DNA of 15,959 bases from a bacterium. Lineage in GTDB: Bacteria > UBP15 > UBA6099 > JAJRTR01. The stretch lies in NCBI GenBank assembly GCA_024278215.1, contig JAJRTR010000099.1, positions 1-15,959 on the forward strand. The letters run 5' to 3'. Positions 3,285 through 15,959 of this stretch are shown here, piece by piece. The notes below the pieces were generated by a model. It was not told the origin of the DNA. It worked only from the letters and a program-made list of their open reading frames with translations, and ran no database searches. The first letter of the stretch is position 1. Each line of letters begins with the position of its first letter. Made by a program: the position numbers and the translations under genes.

Positions 3285-3477
3285 TTCCCATACCGTTCAG
3301 TAAAGACTCGATGGTGCTCAAAAACTTGTCTCTGTTCGCACCGTTCAGCTACTGTGTTGTGTCAACGATGAAAAGACGTAAGAAGAAATGTAGCGGAATG
3401 AATAGAAAAAGTGCAGGACGCAGTCACCACCCCCGCGCCGTAAAAAAGCTGAGAACATGAAGGGTATATGGCTTATT

Positions 3478-3653
3478 GAGCCAATTGCGAAATTCAGTTC
3501 TACTACTTCCGTCTGCAATTGCTCCGAGCCGCGTTATCGGCGCGAAATCTTCCTCGACGTACTATATAGTACGCCTGCGGGGATTTCGCGTCTCTGCCTT
3601 GCTCGGAATAATTTCGCTCGGACTCGTCACAAACGTAATTTTGCAATTGGCTC
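3478..3653 (+). mobile_element. MITE-like element, copy A (176 bp, TSD TATT)
   Basis: The ends are GAGCCAATTGCGAAATT and, inverted, AATTTTGCAATTGGCTC, giving terminal inverted repeats of 17 bp with one mismatch. TATT directly flanks both sides (3474-3477 and 3654-3657), a 4-bp target duplication. The core, 3541-3590, folds into one long hairpin: CGCGAAATC pairs with GATTTCGCG, and a 16-bp palindrome (3558-3573) sits at the tip. The element aligns over its whole length with the reverse complement of 6151-6328, about three quarters identical by eye. There is no transposase, so it would need a transposase from elsewhere; the IS family is not identified. Confidence 0.82.
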
Positions 3654-4210
3654 TATTGCCTGCCGTCATAGATAAATGACTTTGCAGAAGAATCAGCAGA
3701 ATCGTCGCGAGGCACTATTTTCACTGATATGTGAGGCCCCATCGCCATAGACCTGCCGACACTGTCGACTGTATACGAATACTCGGCGTTTGTTTTTTGC
3801 GCTATGATATCCAGCAATTCCGACACCTTGATCCGCGTTATCGTATTTATCGAAACCTCTTTGCCGATCAATTCCGGATCACAATTTATGACCATATTAT
3901 CTGTTTTCGATTCGATGAGATCAATGACCGAACCGACGCTTATGTGCTGCTCCCTTATCGGCTGAAGCTGCTTCTCGAGTCCGACGGGCCTTATGTGGTA
4001 TGCACCAATGACTATCCAGAAAACCATGAAAAAATTAAATTGCGCCGCGCTCGATTCGCTGTTTCGGAAATCTGCGGAAAAGGCGTAACGCAGGATATAC
4101 AAAATCGGCAGGATAATAAAAACCGGAAGCGCGAGGTGGCCGTAGGGAACCCACACGACCAGCACCCCGATGATTATTGCTGCTGCTACTGGTATGATAA
4201 ATCCCTTCAT
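3653..4210 (-). CDS. Small membrane protein with STN-like domain
   Basis: A protein of 185 residues, not recognised as a named family. Three hydrophobic segments (about 3-21, 24-41 and 57-74) anchor it. Residues about 90-150 then look like the STN/secretin short N-terminal fold: a hydrophobic strand (DNMVINCDPEL), the IGKEVSINTITRIKVSELLDII pattern, and a following strand (EYSYTVD). In TonB receptors and secretins this fold lies in the periplasm. Start ATG 4210 has GGAG 5 nt upstream. It is the last gene of a leftward operon, 58 nt after the J-protein gene. The stop codon is made by the MITE junction: TA comes from the target duplication and G from the element's last base. Substrate and role are unknown; a part in envelope assembly or signalling is only a guess. 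Confidence 0.72.
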   Translation of the reverse strand: MKGFIIPVAAAIIIGVLVVWVPYGHLALPVFIILPILYILRYAFSADFRNSESSAAQFNFFMVFWIVIGAYHIRPVGLEKQLQPIREQHISVGSVIDLIESKTDNMVINCDPELIGKEVSINTITRIKVSELLDIIAQKTNAEYSYTVDSVGRSMAMGPHISVKIVPRDDSADSSAKSFIYDGRQ

Positions 4211-6012: not shown

Positions 6013-6150
6013 CAATCTTCAACAAGCGGAAGTATGGTGTCAGGCTGTGAAAGGCTGTTGATAAGAGAGGGCTCGTTCAGGTGCCTTACCGCTCCGGTCT
6101 TTCCCTCCTCGGCCCGGCACACACCCGCCCCGTGCATTAGAAATATCATA

Positions 6151-6328
6151 GAGCTAATTGCAAAATCATGTTTGTAGCGAGATCGAGCGAAATTGTTAAG
6201 AGTAAGGCGGAGGTGAAAAATCCTCGCAGGCGTACTTGTAGAGTACATCTAGGAGGATTTCGCGCCGACAACGCAGCTATGGACAATAGCAGCCGACCGC
6301 AGTAGAATCAGAATTTTGCAATTGGCTC
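6151..6328 (-). mobile_element. MITE-like element, copy B (178 bp, TSD CATA)
   Basis: Same family as 3478-3653 but inverted relative to it. The ends are GAGCTAATTGCAAAAT and AATTTTGCAATTGGCTC, flanked by CATA on both sides (6147-6150 and 6329-6332). The central hairpin is kept as AAATCCTC (6218-6225) with GAGGATTT (6253-6260), although the bases differ from copy A. It lies between the promoter of the leftward operon and that of the rightward mscS gene, so it separates two divergent units. The space 5981-6150 before it holds only the operon promoter. Confidence 0.82.
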
Positions 6329-6471
6329 CATAGAATAGCTTTCCCGGGAATTTGATCGGTTTATCCGTTTGTTATTGACTCCTTTGTTCTTGATTGTTCT
6401 GTGTCCATGCCTGATAAATGTAGTAATCTTATGCATAAAAAAAATACTCATTATTTTTTTTAGTAGTGTTA

Positions 6472-7732: not shown

Positions 7733-8806
7733 TTATTCTTCGAGGAAGCGTTTGAGTTTTTTCGTTGCGCAGGCGTGTTTGAGCTTGCGCAGCGCTTTGG
7801 CTTCGATCTGCCTGATGCGCTCGCGGGTGACACCGAATTCGTTGCCGACGACTTCGAGTGTGCGCGGGTGGCCGTCGATGAGGCCGAACCGGAGTTCGAG
7901 CACGCGCCTTTCGCGGAAACCGATGGTGCTGAGCATCTGGCGTATCTCATCCTTGAGTGCGGTGTAGGAAGCGCATTCGTCGGTGCGCGGGCTGCGCTTG
8001 TCCTCGATGAAGTCTATGAGATGGCTGTCCTCGTCGTCGCCGACTGATGTGTCGAGCGAGATGGGAACTTTGGATATTTTGATCATTTCCCTGATTTTGC
8101 TCTCGGGCATGTCGGTGTGTTTCGAGAGTTCGGCACCTGTGGCTTCGCGACCCAGCTCCTGGCTGAGTTGACGCGAGGTTTTTATGAGTCTGCGTATGGC
8201 GTCGGCCATGTGGATGGGTTTGCGGATCGTCGCGCCCTGATCTGCGATGCCGCGGATGATGCTCTGGCGTATCCACCATGTAGCATAGGTGCTGAAGCGG
8301 GTGCCTTTGCGGTAGTCGTATTTCTCGACGGCGCGCATAAGACCGAGGTTGCCTTCCTGGATCAGGTCGAGAAACGACATGTCGACGTGGCCGACGTATT
8401 TCTTTGCGATGGAGACAACCAGCCTGAGATTCGCTTCTATCAGCTTTGCCTGTGCCGTTTCGTCGCCCAGCTCGATGCGTTTGGCCAGTTCGATCTCTTC
8501 TTCATGGGTCAGGAGCGACACGCGGCCCACATCTTTCATGTACAGTTGGATGGAATCATCTATCGGCGCGTCGGCTTCTATCACCGGCGGCTTCAATTCG
8601 GGTTTTTCATCGTCACCGTATATAAGCGGTTTTCCGTTTTCGTCGATGATCTTTATCCCTTTGGCGATGAACTTATTCATGATGTCCTCGACATCGACCT
8701 CGTGCAGGCTTTCGTCGAGACAGATGATATCCACTATATCATCATAATTTACATATCCCCTGACATTTGATTCTTTCAGGAGCCTGTCAATTTCATTATC
8801 AGCCAT
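7733..8806 (-). CDS. rpoD: RNA polymerase sigma-70 factor, primary (RpoD/SigA) type
   Basis: 357 residues, a short primary-type sigma. Region 1.1 (about 3-55, [13 protein letters not shown]) is present, which argues for group 1. Region 1.2 follows ([28 protein letters not shown]), then region 2 ([47 protein letters not shown]), region 3, and region 4.2 with the -35-reading helix-turn-helix ([27 protein letters not shown]). No large non-conserved insert is present between 1.2 and 2. In the normally near-invariant 2.3/2.4 stretch it differs: E. coli Q437 is kept as Q181, but T440 is I184 and R448 is A192. These positions read or adjoin the upstream end of the -10 element, so its promoter preference may be shifted, or it may be a paralogue of the housekeeping factor. 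Confidence 0.9.
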
Positions 8807-10298: not shown

Positions 10299-10472
10299 TT
10301 ATCGCAACGACTCGAGTTCGGACTTTAATTCGTCGAGTCTGTCCTCGAGTTCTTCGAGCGCCATGAGCTGATGCGGCCTGACCGTGTGAGCCGGCATCCT
10401 CAGCTTCGCGTCTTCGAGTTCCAACGCTGTCTTTCTGATGTCTTCTTCAATTTCTTTTTTCGTTCTCGCCAT
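10299..10472 (-). CDS. 57-residue coiled-coil protein of unknown function
   Basis: ATG 10472 to TAA at 10299 encodes 57 residues. The N terminus (MARTKKEIEEDI) and C terminus (ALEELEDRLDELKSELESLR) are heptad-like and strongly charged, joined by a short basic linker with MPAHTVRPHQ. It should form a helical hairpin or dimer in the cytoplasm. GAGAGA about 7 nt upstream is the ribosome binding site, and a promoter TTGTCG-N17-CATAAT lies at 10519-10491. Regular heptads, binding site and promoter together argue that it is real despite its size. It lies on the same strand as the tracrRNA and about 215 bp beyond it, so tracrRNA read-through would enter it. No family name is claimed. Confidence 0.72.
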   Translation of the reverse strand: MARTKKEIEEDIRKTALELEDAKLRMPAHTVRPHQLMALEELEDRLDELKSELESLR

Positions 10473-10549: not shown

Positions 10550-10763
10550 GAAAAACCGGAAGAATGCCCATAATACATCGTAACTGCCGACTCTGTGAAC
10601 AGTTTACATGAAATACCCGATGAATAGAACGGATAGAATCTCTCGGACTCCACTCAGAGGTAATCAGGCAAAAAGAAAACATTCCCCCAAACTGAAAGAC
10701 GCGCTTCAGGTAGCGCGTCAGGATGCTTGATTCCTCAAGCATTGCCCGCGACTGAAAAGTCTT

Positions 10764-10800
10764 GCTGTGAGTTGCAAGGTAATCGTCGCTCAGATACAAT
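10764..10800. repeat. Degenerate CRISPR repeat (anti-repeat) upstream of cas9
   Basis: Read on the plus strand, this 37-nt stretch is a diverged copy of the crRNA-sense repeat: it shares CTGTG, TTGCA, TCGTCGCTCAG and the terminal TACAAT, with a one-base insertion in the middle. Its transcript from the other strand is the pairing arm of the tracrRNA. Confidence 0.92.
10772..10800 (+). promoter_or_regulatory. Candidate cas9 promoter inside the anti-repeat
   Basis: TTGCAA (10772-10777), a 17-nt spacer and TACAAT (10795-10800) on the plus strand, wholly inside the anti-repeat. The start site would be near 10807, leaving a leader of about 41 nt with AAGGGG (10836-10841) 6 nt before the cas9 ATG. 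It matches the TTGCAG-N16-TACAAT boxes in every array repeat. Activity is inferred. Confidence 0.55.
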
Positions 10801-10808
10801 ATGTGCAT

Positions 10809-10837
10809 AGAATATCAATATTTCAATAAATTGTCAA
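10809..10837 (-). promoter_or_regulatory. tracrRNA promoter
   Basis: On the minus strand a perfect TTGACA (10837-10832), a 17-nt spacer and TATTCT (10814-10809), predicting a start at about 10802, right at the edge of the anti-repeat. It lies within the predicted cas9 leader and faces the candidate cas9 promoter. Confidence 0.8.
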
Positions 10838-10847
10838 GGGGATAATT

Positions 10848-13800
10848 ATGAATAACAATCAAGGTAATAACGTGGAAAAAATTCTCGGACTGGATATGGG
10901 CCCTAATTCCATCGGATGGGCACTGATCGAAAAGGATAGTGGCGGTTTCAAAAAGCTCATCGACATCGGTGTCAGGGTCTTCGAAGCCGGTGTCGATGAT
11001 GACATTGATTCAGGTAAAGACAAATCACGTGCCACCGCCCGTCGCGAGGCCAGGCTCCACCGCCGACAGCTCGCTCGCCGCGCCCGCCGCATGTCTCTGC
11101 TGGCGGCGAAACTTCAGCATTATGGCCTGCTGCCACAGGGGGATCTCTCGACCCCGGAATCGACCAGGGCATTTTTTGACAAACTCGATTCGGACCTGTC
11201 GCTCGGCATCCCCGACCCGGCGCTGATTCCCTATATACTGCGGACGCGCGCACTCGACAACGAGCAGAACCCACACGCAACAGGACGCGCTCTCTATCAC
11301 CTCGCTCAGCGGCGCGGCTATCTCTCCAACCGCAAAGTCGAGTCCAAAGAGGCAGAGAAAGAAAACAAGATTGTCGAAAAAAGCATCGGTGAACTAAAAG
11401 AAAAGATGAAAGAATGCGGCGTGCGCACGCTCGGCGAATACTTCTCGAAACTCGACCCCCGCGAAAAACGCATCAGGCAGCGATACCTGGGCCGCGATAT
11501 GGTCCTCGCCGAGTTCAACTCGATATGGGATACGCAGAGCAGGCATCATCCTGAAATATTCACAGACGAGGCAAGACGCGAAATACATCTCGCAATCTTC
11601 TTTCAGCGCCCCTTGAAAAGCAACAGCGGCTCCATCGGCAAATGTGAGTTCGAGAACCGGCGCCGCGCTCCGCTCGCACTGCTCATTTCCCAGCGTTTCC
11701 GGCTCCTTCAGCGGGTTAATGACCTGCGCGTCGTTTCACCGGAAGGAATATCAAGACCGCTTACAGAGGCGGAACGCGCCGCCGCGCTCGATGTCCTCGA
11801 ATTCACGGGCACAATGAAATTCACTGCACTTAGAAAAAAACTCAATCTACAGAAATTCAAATTCAATTTCGAATTGTCCGGCGAAAAAGGCGAAAAGGGA
11901 GAAATTTACGGCAACAGGACTTCCGCCAAACTCGCCCGCATCTTCGGCAAGGAACTCTGGCGTGCTTATCCTGATGCAACGAAAGAAAAAATAATTCACG
12001 ACATCCGTTCCATAAGAAAACACGAAGCAAGAAAAAAAGTTGCCGTCGAACGCTGGGGACTTACAGCGGAAAAAGCAGAAGAATTCGCAAAAGTATTGCT
12101 TGAAGAAGGATATATCGCTCTTTCTCGCGCCGCTCTCGAAAAACTCGTTCCACTGCTCGAAAAAGGTGTTTCATACTCGACCGCCGTAAAGGAGATTTAT
12201 CCCCGCGCGACTGATAAACCCCTCGACTTTCTGCCTTCTCAATACTCGCGGCTCACTCCCGATGTGAACAATCCCGCTGTGCGCCGCACTCTCACCGAGC
12301 TGCGCAAGGTCGTCAACGCGATTGTCCGCAAACACGGCAAACCCGACATTATCCGTGTCGAACTCGCACGCAACCTCAAACAAAACCGCAAAAAGAGAAA
12401 AGCTGTTTTCGACGCGAATAATAAGAGACGGGGAAACAGAAAACGAATAAAGAAAAAACTCGAGGAGGAATCCGCAAAATACTGGAGCAACTGGGACATC
12501 AAACGCTCGGACATAGAAAAATGGCAGCTCGCCGAAGAATGCGGCATGATATGCCCTTACACCGGCAAACAGATGGGGTTCCGCTCTCTCTTTGTCGAGC
12601 CGCAGTTCGACATAGAACACATAATCCCTTTCAGCCGCAGCCTCGACAACTCGTTTCTCAACAAGACGCTCTGCTATCACGAGGAAAACAGAAATGTCAA
12701 ACGCAATCAGACCCCCTGGGAAGCCTACGGCGACACCGACAAATGGGACGGGATCATAAACCGCGTCAAGAAATTCAAAGGGGATGCCAGACAGGCGAAA
12801 CTTCGCAAGTTCCAGACAAAAAAAGTCGATCTCTCCGACTTCACCAGCAGACAGCTCAACGACACGCGCTACGCATCGAAACTCGCTATGCGCTATCTCG
12901 GGCTTCTTTACGCTTCCGGCAGCGAGGGCTACGATCTCGAAGGCCGCCGCCGCGTCCAGGCATCTTCCGGCGGCGTCACCTTCTTCCTGCGTAATCTCCA
13001 CGGCCTCAACTCCGTGCTCGCGCCCGGCCCGGCGAAAACCCGCGAAGACCATCGCCACCATGCCATCGACGCCGTCTGCGTCGCGCTCGCCGAACCCGCC
13101 ACTGTAAAACTGCTCGGCGACGCCGCCGAACAGGCCGAGAAAAAACATGCCGTGAAGAACTTCGACCCCGCCATTATTTCCGAGCCGTGGCCCGGCTTCA
13201 AATATGACATAAGCACCGCCGTTAAATCCGTTATCACCTCTCACGCTCCGCAGCGCAAAGTCAACAAAGCCCTGCACAAAGAGACTATTTACAGCAAAAT
13301 CCACACAGACGAAGACGGCGAACAATGTGTGCATATCCGCAAAAAGATCGAAAACCTTACTCAGAAGATGATTAAGGATATCGTGGACCCTGTCGTCAAA
13401 GAAAAAGTCATCGACGCGCTCGGCGGCGGCAATCCCGCGCAAGTCTTCAAAGACCCCGCCAACCACCCATTCTTCGAGACAAAAGACGGAAGAATAATAC
13501 CGATTCACAGCGTCAAGGTAAGTGTTAAAAAAACAATAACAAAGATCGGCAAAGGCATTAAAGGCAGAAACGTCGTTACTTCGTCCAACCACCATATCGA
13601 AATATTCGAGGTACCCGCGAAAAAGAACAAAACCAAATGGGTCGGCCGCATCGTTTCCACCCTTGAAGCGATGGACCGCCTGCGCCGTAAAGCGCCTGTC
13701 GTAGATCGTGAGCCCGGCGAAGACCCCAGGTTCAAAAACGGCAGATTCCTGTTCTCACTCTGTGGTGGCGACATCATCCGCATCGGCCACGACGACATCG

Positions 13801-14030
13801 AATTGCTGGACGAAAATGGCAAGGACGATCTCTCCTGCCTCTACAGGGTGCGCACTGTGACAATACAGGGAGGCGGAATGTTAACATGCGTCAGGATCAA
13901 CGACGCACGGCCCAAGAAAGAAATCGGCAAAGAAGATATGTATTGGCCATCGGTTTCAGTTCTTAAAAGGGACGGCTGCCGGAAGGTAAACGTTACGCCG
14001 CTCGGGGAGGTGATCCCGGCTAATGATTGA
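10848..14030 (+). CDS. cas9: Cas9, type II-C RNA-guided DNA endonuclease
   Basis: 1060 residues, the compact size of II-C Cas9. Together with crRNA and tracrRNA it cuts both strands of matching foreign DNA. RuvC-I is at LGLDMGPNSIGWAL (catalytic D16). An arginine-rich bridge helix spans about 60-82. The recognition lobe follows to about 485. RuvC-II has E505 in IIRVELARNLK. The HNH domain has H591 in FDIEHIIPFSRSLDNSFLN and N614 in EENRN. RuvC-III has H738 and D741 in DHRHHAIDA. The C-terminal wedge and PAM-interacting region (about 800-1060) ends at GEVIPAND. All catalytic residues are present, so it should be active. ATG 10848 has AAGGGG 6 nt upstream. The TGA overlaps the cas1 start by 8 nt, so the two are translationally coupled. 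The promoter is probably within the anti-repeat. The PAM cannot be read from this sequence. Confidence 0.97.
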   Translation: MNNNQGNNVEKILGLDMGPNSIGWALIEKDSGGFKKLIDIGVRVFEAGVDDDIDSGKDKSRATARREARLHRRQLARRARRMSLLAAKLQHYGLLPQGDLSTPESTRAFFDKLDSDLSLGIPDPALIPYILRTRALDNEQNPHATGRALYHLAQRRGYLSNRKVESKEAEKENKIVEKSIGELKEKMKECGVRTLGEYFSKLDPREKRIRQRYLGRDMVLAEFNSIWDTQSRHHPEIFTDEARREIHLAIFFQRPLKSNSGSIGKCEFENRRRAPLALLISQRFRLLQRVNDLRVVSPEGISRPLTEAERAAALDVLEFTGTMKFTALRKKLNLQKFKFNFELSGEKGEKGEIYGNRTSAKLARIFGKELWRAYPDATKEKIIHDIRSIRKHEARKKVAVERWGLTAEKAEEFAKVLLEEGYIALSRAALEKLVPLLEKGVSYSTAVKEIYPRATDKPLDFLPSQYSRLTPDVNNPAVRRTLTELRKVVNAIVRKHGKPDIIRVELARNLKQNRKKRKAVFDANNKRRGNRKRIKKKLEEESAKYWSNWDIKRSDIEKWQLAEECGMICPYTGKQMGFRSLFVEPQFDIEHIIPFSRSLDNSFLNKTLCYHEENRNVKRNQTPWEAYGDTDKWDGIINRVKKFKGDARQAKLRKFQTKKVDLSDFTSRQLNDTRYASKLAMRYLGLLYASGSEGYDLEGRRRVQASSGGVTFFLRNLHGLNSVLAPGPAKTREDHRHHAIDAVCVALAEPATVKLLGDAAEQAEKKHAVKNFDPAIISEPWPGFKYDISTAVKSVITSHAPQRKVNKALHKETIYSKIHTDEDGEQCVHIRKKIENLTQKMIKDIVDPVVKEKVIDALGGGNPAQVFKDPANHPFFETKDGRIIPIHSVKVSVKKTITKIGKGIKGRNVVTSSNHHIEIFEVPAKKNKTKWVGRIVSTLEAMDRLRRKAPVVDREPGEDPRFKNGRFLFSLCGGDIIRIGHDDIELLDENGKDDLSCLYRVRTVTIQGGGMLTCVRINDARPKKEIGKEDMYWPSVSVLKRDGCRKVNVTPLGEVIPAND

Positions 14031-14982
14031 GCGAGTGATCGACATCACGGAAACCGCTGTGCATCTTTCCACAAAAGGAGCTCTGCTCGCTGTCACGAAG
14101 AAAGACGCCGACACCTTGAAGCCGCGACCGCGCGGCGCACGCGCACACGACCCGGCAAACCCGCCACCCGCCGAAACTACTATCCCCTTCGAGGAGATAG
14201 CCGCCGTAGTCGCCGCGCATCCGCACATCACTTTCAGCAGGGCGGCCGTCTCCGATCTTGCCGCCGCGGGCGCTATCCTCGTCGTCTGCGACGACAGATT
14301 CACTCCTTCCGCCATGATGCTGCCACTTGCCGCAAATTTCATACAGACGGAGAGATTCGCCGCACAGGCCGCCGCGCAACTGCCTGTAAAGAAAAGAGCC
14401 TGGCAGAAAATCATCAAAGCAAAAGTCCGGGCACAGGCCAGGCTGCTCAGAGAGGTTCGCGGGAAAGACTTCAGACTCGCCTCACTCGCCGAGCGCGTTA
14501 AATCCGGCGACAGCGACGGCATCGAAGCGCAGGCCGCACGCGCCTACTGGCCCGCTCTTTTCAATAATCCACAATTCCGCAGACACCGCGACGGCGGCGG
14601 CCCCAACATCTTTCTCAACTACGGCTACACCATCCTTCGCGCCATCACCGCACGTGCCGTCTGCGCCGCCGGCCTCCACCCCTCTCTCGGCCTCCACCAC
14701 CACAACCGCTACGACACCTTCTGCCTCGCCTCCGACCTCATGGAGCCCTTCCGCCCCATCGTCGACCGCGCCTCCATCAACCTCTACTGGGAAATGGACC
14801 TCGAACCCGCCCTCGACTCGAACGCGCGCGCAACCCTCATCCGGTCTCTAACCGACACTCGAATCCTCTACAAAAAAGAAGAACGCACCATTTTCGATGT
14901 ACTCAACAAAATCGCCTTCAGCCTTGTTGAAGTATTCGCGGGTAAACGTAAAAACATATCGCTGCCGGAACGATTTATCTGA
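14023..14982 (+). CDS. cas1: Cas1, type II spacer integrase
   Basis: 319 residues. With Cas2 it forms the integrase that adds new spacers to the array. The N-terminal beta domain runs to about residue 95 (ITFSRAAVSDLAAAGAILVVCDDRFTPS is typical) and the helical catalytic domain follows. Metal-binding residues are visible: E168 in GIEAQAARAYW, a histidine in the HHH triplet 225-227 of LGLHHHNRYD (most likely H226), and E241 in SDLMEPFRPIVD. Residues about 28-55 carry an extra Pro/Arg-rich loop not seen in the shortest type II Cas1 proteins. ATG 14023 overlaps the end of cas9 by 8 nt. From about 14560 to 14870 the codons are almost all C-ended and the plus strand is very poor in G, unlike cas2. 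No cas4 or csn2 is present, consistent with subtype II-C. Confidence 0.96.
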   Translation: MIERVIDITETAVHLSTKGALLAVTKKDADTLKPRPRGARAHDPANPPPAETTIPFEEIAAVVAAHPHITFSRAAVSDLAAAGAILVVCDDRFTPSAMMLPLAANFIQTERFAAQAAAQLPVKKRAWQKIIKAKVRAQARLLREVRGKDFRLASLAERVKSGDSDGIEAQAARAYWPALFNNPQFRRHRDGGGPNIFLNYGYTILRAITARAVCAAGLHPSLGLHHHNRYDTFCLASDLMEPFRPIVDRASINLYWEMDLEPALDSNARATLIRSLTDTRILYKKEERTIFDVLNKIAFSLVEVFAGKRKNISLPERFI

Positions 14983-15068
14983 ATCCTGGATATAGAAGGG
15001 AAAGCATTAAAAAAAGACAAAAACGGCAAAAGAGAATAATGATTTCTGCTTCGCCGAGCCTCCGGCGG

Positions 15069-15100
15069 CTTAAGACAACTTCTGAAGAAGTCTTCTTAAG
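15069..15100. other. Hairpin in the cas1-cas2 gap
   Basis: CTTAAG (15069-15074) pairs with CTTAAG (15095-15100), and inside them ACTTC pairs with GAAGT around a TGAA loop, separated by a small internal bulge. A second GC-rich dyad (GCCG...CGGC, about 15053-15066) stands just before it. The 226-bp gap holds no other gene. The hairpin could attenuate or process the cas9-cas1 message before cas2; no T run follows immediately. Confidence 0.45.
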
Positions 15101-15208
15101 AATCTTTCAAAACTTTTCAGGTATTGAGAATAAGACAATCAGCAAGTTTTGTACGTATTTATCAGCGTAATCAGCGTCAATAAAGTTTGCAGAGTATGGA
15201 AGATAAAA

Positions 15209-15544
15209 ATGAGACCAGTAGTATCGGAGTACAAAACGATGTGGCTGTTCACAATGTTCGACCTGCCAGTGGACTCGAAAGAAGCGAGGAGGGAATACAC
15301 GCAGTTTCGCAAAACCCTGCTAGGCGAAGGATTCATGATGTTGCAATTTTCTATCTATGTCAGGTTCTGCGCGACAGAAGAATCGGCGAAGAAATATCAC
15401 CGCCGCATCAAAGCCGCACTGCCGCACGAAGGACAGGTGCGGATACTCGCCGTCACCGACAGGCAGTTCGGAAAAATGGAAGTCTACTTTGGAAAAACGA
15501 GGGGAAAGGTCGAGAAAGCGCCCACCCAACTCGTGCTTTTTTAA
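15209..15544 (+). CDS. cas2: Cas2, type II adaptation protein
   Basis: 111 residues from ATG 15209, the usual size of type II Cas2. It is the dimeric ferredoxin-fold core of the Cas1-Cas2 integrase. MWLFTMFDLPV (first strand with the conserved Asp), ARREYTQFRKTLLGEGFMMLQFSIYVRF and the strand GQVRILAVTDRQFGKMEVYFG are characteristic. The frame is open to an ATG at 15149, but GGAAG 6 nt before 15209 and the domain start favour the later codon. Unlike most type II operons, where cas1 and cas2 abut or overlap, 226 bp with hairpins separate them, so cas2 may have its own promoter, though none stands out. The stop at 15544 is 48 bp before the first CRISPR repeat. Confidence 0.95.
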   Translation: MRPVVSEYKTMWLFTMFDLPVDSKEARREYTQFRKTLLGEGFMMLQFSIYVRFCATEESAKKYHRRIKAALPHEGQVRILAVTDRQFGKMEVYFGKTRGKVEKAPTQLVLF

Positions 15545-15592
15545 CTCGATATTATCAAAAACCCCCTTAAATACTATTCCCTTTGCGGGTCT

Positions 15593-15959
15593 ATTGTACC
15601 TGAGCGACGACTCCCTGCAAACCACAGTATGACGCCCAGAACGCCCTGCTGAAAATTCATTGTACCTGAGCGACGACTCCCTGCAAACCACAGTTTTTTG
15701 TTTATATCCCCGCCGGGGCTCGAAATTGTACCTGAGCGACGACTCCCTGCAAACCACAGTATATTATCAGAATGGGAAACTTGTTAATATAATTGTACCT
15801 GAGCGACGACTCCCTGCAAACCACAGTATATGTCTTGACAAACAAAAATAATGTGCTAATTGTACCTGAGCGACGACTCCCTGCAAACCACAGTTCTCAC
15901 GGGCTATGGCTCGCATCATCGGTAATTGTACCTGAGCGACGACTCCCTGCAAACCACAG
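15593..15959 (-). CRISPR. CRISPR array, type II-C, at least 6 repeats, truncated by window end
   Basis: Repeats of 36 nt, all identical, lie at 15593-15628, 15659-15694, 15725-15760, 15792-15827, 15859-15894, and 15925 to the edge (35 nt visible). Spacers are 30, 30, 31, 31 and 30 nt. On the plus strand the repeat begins ATTGTACCTGAGCG and ends CAAACCACAGT. Pairing with the tracrRNA shows that the crRNA sense is the minus strand, so transcription runs toward cas2. In that sense each repeat holds TTGCAG, 16 nt, and TACAAT as its last six bases. A start 6-7 nt into the spacer would leave guides of about 24 nt, as in Neisseria. No spacer matches this window by eye. The 48 nt between cas2 and the first repeat could be the integration-side leader or the trailer; the perfect first repeat does not decide which. 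Confidence 0.98.

What the first reader, a model, noticed from the sequence alone, without database searches (positions are those of the whole stretch)
10764..10847. Anti-repeat appears to double as the cas9 promoter, facing the tracrRNA promoter
On the plus strand the anti-repeat holds TTGCAA-N17-TACAAT (10772-10800), pointing at cas9. On the minus strand TTGACA-N17-TATTCT (10837-10809) sits in the predicted cas9 leader and points back through the anti-repeat. The predicted start sites (about 10807 rightward, about 10802 leftward) cross over. Two polymerases could not occupy both sites at once, so cas9 mRNA and tracrRNA would compete, and their 5' ends could be complementary for a few bases. 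This suggests a built-in balance between nuclease and guide scaffold that arose when a repeat was captured together with its own promoter. The boxes and spacings are seen in the sequence; their use and the switch-like behaviour are inferred.
Basis: partly seen in the sequence, partly recalled or inferred. Interest (0 to 1): 0.75.

Follow-up and report, generated by a model that had tools for sequence, protein, structure and literature searches.

The report
Anti-repeat carries the repeat's promoter fossil
In this bacterial CRISPR-Cas9 locus the DNA encoding the guide-binding part of the tracrRNA also looks like a promoter pointing at cas9, but comparison with about 100 related loci shows that this is mostly a by-product of the anti-repeat mirroring the CRISPR repeat, and not a conserved switch.

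Summary
The boxes are real and at the stated coordinates: plus TTGCAA-N17-TACAAT (10772-10800) and minus TTGACA-N17-TATTCT (10837-10809). The minus promoter is a convincing tracrRNA promoter. It is strong, conserved, and starts tracrRNA at the edge of the anti-repeat (AR). The plus boxes are inherited: every array repeat carries the same promoter on its crRNA strand (TTTGCA-N17-TACAAT), and the AR mirrors the repeat. In 65 type II-C loci with the AR directly upstream of cas9, the repeat-type -10 usually survives in the AR, but no better than the neighbouring paired bases (p=0.80). The -35 TTG survives in only 5 of 65; most ARs carry AAG there, a U.U mismatch loop in the guide duplex. The window's closest relative has lost it. 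Locally the AR is still the best cas9 promoter candidate in the upstream region (11.7 bits), so it may drive cas9 here. The two promoters do overlap, but the predicted transcripts diverge by 4 nt, so complementary 5' ends are not expected. Nothing shows a switch. This is an ordinary II-C leader with an unusually complete fossil promoter.

The parts
10690..10802 (-). predicted tracrRNA (about 110 nt), starting at the outer edge of the anti-repeat and ending at an intrinsic terminator
   Evidence: anti-repeat plus terminator; duplex with the repeat -53.6 kcal/mol; same layout in 74 related loci
10764..10800 (-). anti-repeat, complementary to the 36-nt array repeat; its plus strand reads like a repeat
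   Evidence: inverted match to all six repeats, 88%; only AR-like hit in the window; full-length duplex
10832..10837 (-). -35 box TTGACA of the tracrRNA promoter; overlaps the cas9 Shine-Dalgarno sequence
10809..10814 (-). -10 box TATTCT of the tracrRNA promoter; start expected at about 10802
   Evidence: 13.3 bits
10772..10777 (+). -35-like TTGCAA inside the anti-repeat, matching the -35 position of the repeat promoter
   Evidence: TTG kept in 5 of 65 related ARs
10795..10800 (+). -10-like TACAAT inside the anti-repeat, identical to the -10 at the 3' end of every repeat
10698..10719 (-). tracrRNA terminator stem (GACGCGCTACCTGAAGCGCGTC + TTTCAGTTTG)
10836..10841 (+). Shine-Dalgarno AAGGGG of cas9
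   Evidence: sequence
10848..14030 (+). cas9, 1060 aa, type II-C size
   Evidence: TIGR01865 E 1.2e-200
14023..14982 (+). cas1
   Evidence: TIGR03639 E 1.5e-69
15149..15544 (+). cas2 (true start probably downstream of 15149)
   Evidence: TIGR01573 E 2.1e-20, matching from residue 31
15591..15959 (-). CRISPR array, six repeats, cut by the contig end; crRNA strand is minus; each repeat ends with TACAAT

Best explanation
This is the leader of an ordinary type II-C CRISPR-Cas9 locus. A strong sigma70 promoter in the 47-nt cas9 leader (minus strand) makes tracrRNA from the outer edge of the anti-repeat to the terminator at 10698-10719. The crRNAs come from promoters inside the array repeats, as shown experimentally in Campylobacter and Neisseria. 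The anti-repeat must pair with the repeat, so its other strand reads like a repeat and inherits the repeat's promoter boxes. Because repeat promoters end at the repeat's edge and tracrRNA starts at the anti-repeat edge, the two -10 boxes end up facing each other, usually 6-8 bp apart. In most relatives the inherited promoter is crippled, because the guide duplex has an internal U.U loop exactly where the -35 lies. In this window the anti-repeat pairs there instead, so a complete -35/-10 pair remains and may supply some or most of the cas9 transcription. Shown here: boxes, layout, inheritance, loss of the -35 in relatives, no conservation beyond pairing. Inferred: that either promoter fires, and the start positions.
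For: Repeat carries TTTGCA-N17-TACAAT, 10.0 bits. Same AR-cas9-cas1-cas2-array order in 74 loci. Repeat promoter median 7.8 bits against 3.7 for the AR plus strand, paired Wilcoxon p=7e-10. tracrRNA promoter median 9.6 bits against 3.0 in shuffles, 40 of 65 at p<=0.05, usual gap to the AR edge 6-8 nt. TTG at -35: 42 of 65 repeats, 5 of 65 ARs; TTG plus -10 only in window, L021, L032, L049, scattered on the Cas9 tree, the window's sister lacking it. Pairable positions: hexamer 313/336, adjacent stem 725/784, p=0.80; T1A2T6 154/168, C3A4C5 153/168. The window's repeat:AR duplex runs through the -35 region, -53.6 kcal/mol. Repeat promoters documented in PMC3656092 and PMC12080349. Host encodes a sigma70 of RpoD type at 7733-8806.
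Against: Across 64 loci the AR edge is the only plus-strand position with a strong recurrent promoter signal (mean z 2.09, rank 1 of 405). Where the AR lies away from cas9 the -10 is usually broken: 0 of 4 intact (p=0.008) in loci with 227-640 nt in between, and 5 of 28 where the AR sits beside the array; matched pairs on the tree go the same way 3.9 to 0.1 (p=0.125). This could mean that the -10 is used for cas9, although in the second group tracrRNA's own -10 has moved into the AR, which also explains the loss (by inspection). No other strong cas9 promoter is visible in the window (next upstream site 7.1 bits).
Confidence: 0.78

Rival explanations
1. The anti-repeat is the dedicated cas9 promoter in this organism and competes with the tracrRNA promoter, setting a balance between nuclease and scaffold.
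For: Best plus-strand site upstream of cas9, 11.7 bits, second highest of 65 loci; footprints overlap; -10 lost in loci where the AR is separated from cas9.
Against: -35 kept in only 4 of 65 loci with an intact -10, and lost in the sister lineage, where the AR-edge site scores 3.2 bits; hexamer no better conserved than the paired stem; no expression data.
Confidence: 0.25
2. The plus boxes are an unused fossil; cas9 is transcribed from another promoter, upstream of the tracrRNA gene or of a type that the sigma70 matrix does not score, so that its long leader is antisense to tracrRNA.
For: AR promoters are weak in most relatives; in the closest kin the best plus site lies 170 nt before the ATG, 9.8 bits; in Neisseria meningitidis cas9 is reported with -35/-10 boxes and predicted Fur/MisR sites (PMC13431127).
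Against: In the window no competing upstream site exceeds 7.1 bits; a leader running through the tracrRNA gene would form a long duplex with tracrRNA.
Confidence: 0.4
3. Retention of the terminal T of the AR hexamer reflects tracrRNA initiation: its complement is the A at tracrRNA +1, so a start-site purine and not a cas9 -10 is being kept.
For: The gap of 6-8 nt between tracrRNA -10 and AR edge puts +1 at or next to this base; T6 kept in 49 of 56 and 7 of 9 loci.
Against: T1 and A2 are kept about as well and are not near +1, so this explains only one position.
Confidence: 0.3

Closest known systems
Type II-C loci with repeat-embedded crRNA promoters (Campylobacter jejuni, Neisseria meningitidis; PMC3656092, PMC12080349)
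   Same: -10 box at the 3' end of every repeat, array transcribed against the cas genes, tracrRNA with anti-repeat
   Different: here TACAAT with a -35-like TTTGCA; in C. jejuni GGTAAAAT resembling an extended -10; in the Campylobacterota loci of class D the anti-repeat lies between cas2 and the array
EH CRISPR-Cas9 (PMC10281378) and Clostridium cellulolyticum II-C (PMC7038990)
   Same: tracrRNA gene with anti-repeat upstream of cas9; EH: predicted promoter and terminator, array inferred to run in the tracrRNA direction; C. cellulolyticum: array transcribed against cas genes, -10-like end of the repeats noted
   Different: neither paper, in the passages read, comments on the promoter on the other strand of the anti-repeat
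Flavobacterium psychrophilum CN46 II-C locus (PMC10309648)
   Same: tracrRNA next to cas9, repeat-encoded promoter
   Different: an IS982 lies between tracrRNA and cas9 and is proposed to supply the cas9 promoter, showing that the anti-repeat need not be adjacent
Overlapping face-to-face promoters with transcriptional interference (general class, from own knowledge)
   Same: two sigma70 promoters whose melted regions overlap
   Different: no evidence here that both are used

Membership tests
Type II-C CRISPR-Cas | small Cas9 with cas1 and cas2, no csn2 or cas4 in the operon | tested here: met
   TIGR01865, TIGR03639, TIGR01573; no further gene between cas9 and the array in the window
Type II-C CRISPR-Cas | tracrRNA with an anti-repeat complementary to the array repeat and a terminator | tested here: met
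   no Rfam tracrRNA hit
II-C with repeat-embedded promoters | -10 (and -35-like) boxes inside each repeat pointing into the spacer | tested here: met
   TTTGCA-17-TACAAT, 10.0 bits; TACAxT or TATAxT ends in most of the loci
II-C with repeat-embedded promoters | crRNA 5' ends a few bases inside each spacer | not testable with these tools
   needs dRNA-seq
Conserved dual-promoter anti-repeat | -35 and -10 of the plus strand conserved beyond what pairing requires | tested here: not met
   TTG kept in 5 of 65 ARs; hexamer pairability 313/336 against stem 725/784, p=0.80
Conserved dual-promoter anti-repeat | -10 kept only where the anti-repeat is next to cas9 | tested here: inconclusive
   41/56 adjacent, 0/4 separated, 5/28 beside array; tree-matched pairs 3.9 to 0.1, p=0.125, confounded by a moved tracrRNA start
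Promoter pair with mutual interference | both promoters active and mutually exclusive in vivo | not testable with these tools
   geometry compatible only

The most novel reading that the evidence does not exclude
The anti-repeat DNA does double duty in this organism: one strand encodes the guide-binding part of tracrRNA and the other is the working cas9 promoter, overlapping the tracrRNA promoter so that initiation at one excludes the other and ties nuclease to scaffold output.
Probability: 0.2. Interest if true: 0.55.

Novelty: new member of a known kind. Interest (0 to 1): 0.27.

Why it matters
It explains why II-C anti-repeats look like promoters pointing at cas9, and why that appearance alone should not be read as regulation. 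It also gives a usable question: the anti-repeat edge is the only strong recurrent plus-strand promoter position upstream of these II-C cas9 genes, and the -10 tends to decay when the anti-repeat moves away, so 5'-end mapping in a few II-C species would show whether inherited repeat promoters were ever recruited for cas9.

Tried and rejected
Single-protein search of genome contigs found nothing; the alignment query worked. Rfam showed no tracrRNA model hit; a sub-threshold permuted tmRNA at 14976-15073 (E 0.32, 20.8 bits against a cut-off of 47) was treated as chance. The contrast between adjacent and non-adjacent ARs looked at first like proof of selection, but was downgraded because in Campylobacterota the tracrRNA -10 has moved into the AR end. 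Complementary 5' ends rejected on coordinates. Papers with experimental Neisseria start sites were not held. The sigma70 matrix was written from general knowledge of E. coli promoter frequencies; only relative scores were used. Loci with unreliable AR alignment or duplicates (L033, L056, L069, L073, L084, L092, L144, L185, L190, L199) were dropped from the counts.

Full report
Observation. The locus is cas9 (10848-14030), cas1, cas2, then an array whose crRNA strand is minus. The anti-repeat (AR) lies at 10764-10800, and tracrRNA is expected on the minus strand from about 10802 to the terminator at 10698-10719. The repeat and tracrRNA pair over the whole repeat, -53.6 kcal/mol, including the stretch that holds TTGCAA. 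A canonical sigma70 of RpoD type is encoded in the window itself (7733-8806), so canonical boxes are a fair assumption for this host.

Geometry. The tracrRNA -35 box (10832-10837) overlaps the cas9 Shine-Dalgarno sequence (10836-10841). The two -10 boxes face each other with 8 bp between them, so their melted regions overlap and both complexes can hardly be open together (inference from geometry). With starts at about 10807 (+) and 10802 (-), the plus transcript runs right and the minus transcript runs left: they diverge and share no bases.

Origin of the plus boxes. The repeat itself reads TTTGCA-N17-TACAAT on the crRNA strand (10.0 bits). Repeat-embedded promoters are established for II-C systems: in C. 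jejuni start sites were mapped inside each spacer and each repeat ends with an extended -10-like sequence (PMC3656092), and later work treats this as the II-C rule (PMC12080349; PMC7038990). Since the AR is complementary to the repeat, its plus strand reads like a repeat and receives the promoter for free.

Comparative set. Relatives were fetched from 80 named records and from whole genomes. 111 loci had a detectable array. The AR lay directly upstream of cas9 in 74 (class U), between cas2 and the array in 29 (class D; 28 after dropping L033, all from the Campylobacterota search), and 227-640 nt upstream of cas9 in 4 (class F). After dropping unreliable alignments, 65 class U loci were scored.

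-35. TTG lies at the right spacing in 42 of 65 repeats but in only 5 of 65 ARs; TTG together with an intact -10 is found in window, L021, L032 and L049 only. The usual AR sequence there is AAG, which places U.U mismatches in the repeat:tracrRNA duplex, a likely structural loop of the guide (inference). On the Cas9 tree the four loci are scattered; the window's sister, 54% identical, lacks TTG, and its AR-edge site scores 3.2 bits against 11.9 for its tracrRNA promoter. The AR plus promoter is weaker than the repeat promoter overall (medians 3.7 and 7.8 bits, p=7e-10).

-10. The hexamer is usually intact in class U, but so is the rest of the stem: positions that can still pair are 313/336 in the hexamer and 725/784 in the adjacent stem (p=0.80), and the positions critical for a -10 (T1, A2, T6) are kept no better than the other three (154/168 and 153/168) (56 loci outside Campylobacterota).

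What speaks for some use. The AR edge is the only plus-strand position with a strong recurrent promoter signal upstream of cas9, and in the window it is clearly the best candidate (11.7 bits; the next upstream site is 7.1). The -10 is broken in 4 of 4 class F loci (in L090 the repeat itself lacks the final T) and in 23 of 28 class D loci; six tree-independent pairs go the same way in 3.9 and the other way in 0.1 (p=0.125). In class D, however, the sequences show tracrRNA's own -10 inside the AR end (for example L156, ATTATA on the plus strand), so that part of the AR is probably no longer transcribed and its decay needs no promoter argument. The terminal T is also the complement of the predicted tracrRNA +1, which gives it a second reason to be kept.

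tracrRNA promoter. This half of the finding is solid: median 9.6 bits against 3.0 for shuffled leaders, significant in 40 of 65 loci, with the usual gap of 6-8 nt that puts the start at the AR edge.

Verdict. A conserved promoter function or a built-in balance is not. Whether the unusually complete fossil promoter is used for cas9 in this organism is open; I put it at about one in four as the main cas9 promoter. Limits: all promoter statements are from sequence; the scoring matrix is approximate; class D is essentially one clade; metagenome assemblies may cut arrays.

Noticed in passing
window 3470-3660 and 6148-6332: A roughly 180-bp element with 25-nt inverted ends (84% complementary) is present in at least 40 copies at about 80% identity in the host genome (435 first-look candidates, only 40 scored): a MITE-like or palindromic interspersed repeat family.
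   Followed up: partly
L063 9531-9695 and L093 9274-9396: In these two loci a single degenerate repeat in array orientation lies 50-100 nt beyond the anti-repeat on the cas9 side, a relic mini-array beside the tracrRNA gene whose repeat promoter would point at tracrRNA.
   Followed up: partly
anti-repeats of about two thirds of 56 II-C loci, AR positions -28/-27 from the 3' end: A repeat TTG faces AAG in the anti-repeat, a widely conserved tandem U.U mismatch in the repeat:tracrRNA duplex.
   Followed up: partly
window 10832-10841; also L021, L023, L032, L037, L049: The tracrRNA -35 box and the cas9 Shine-Dalgarno sequence are fused as TGTCAAGGGG, so the two signals constrain each other.
   Followed up: no
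class D loci, e.g. L156, L171: In Campylobacterota with the anti-repeat beside the array, a tracrRNA -10 box appears to sit inside the distal end of the anti-repeat, shortening the transcribed anti-repeat.
   Followed up: partly
window 10303-10472 (-): A 56-aa reading frame on the minus strand lies between the FGE-sulfatase-domain gene and tracrRNA, with no Pfam match.
   Followed up: no
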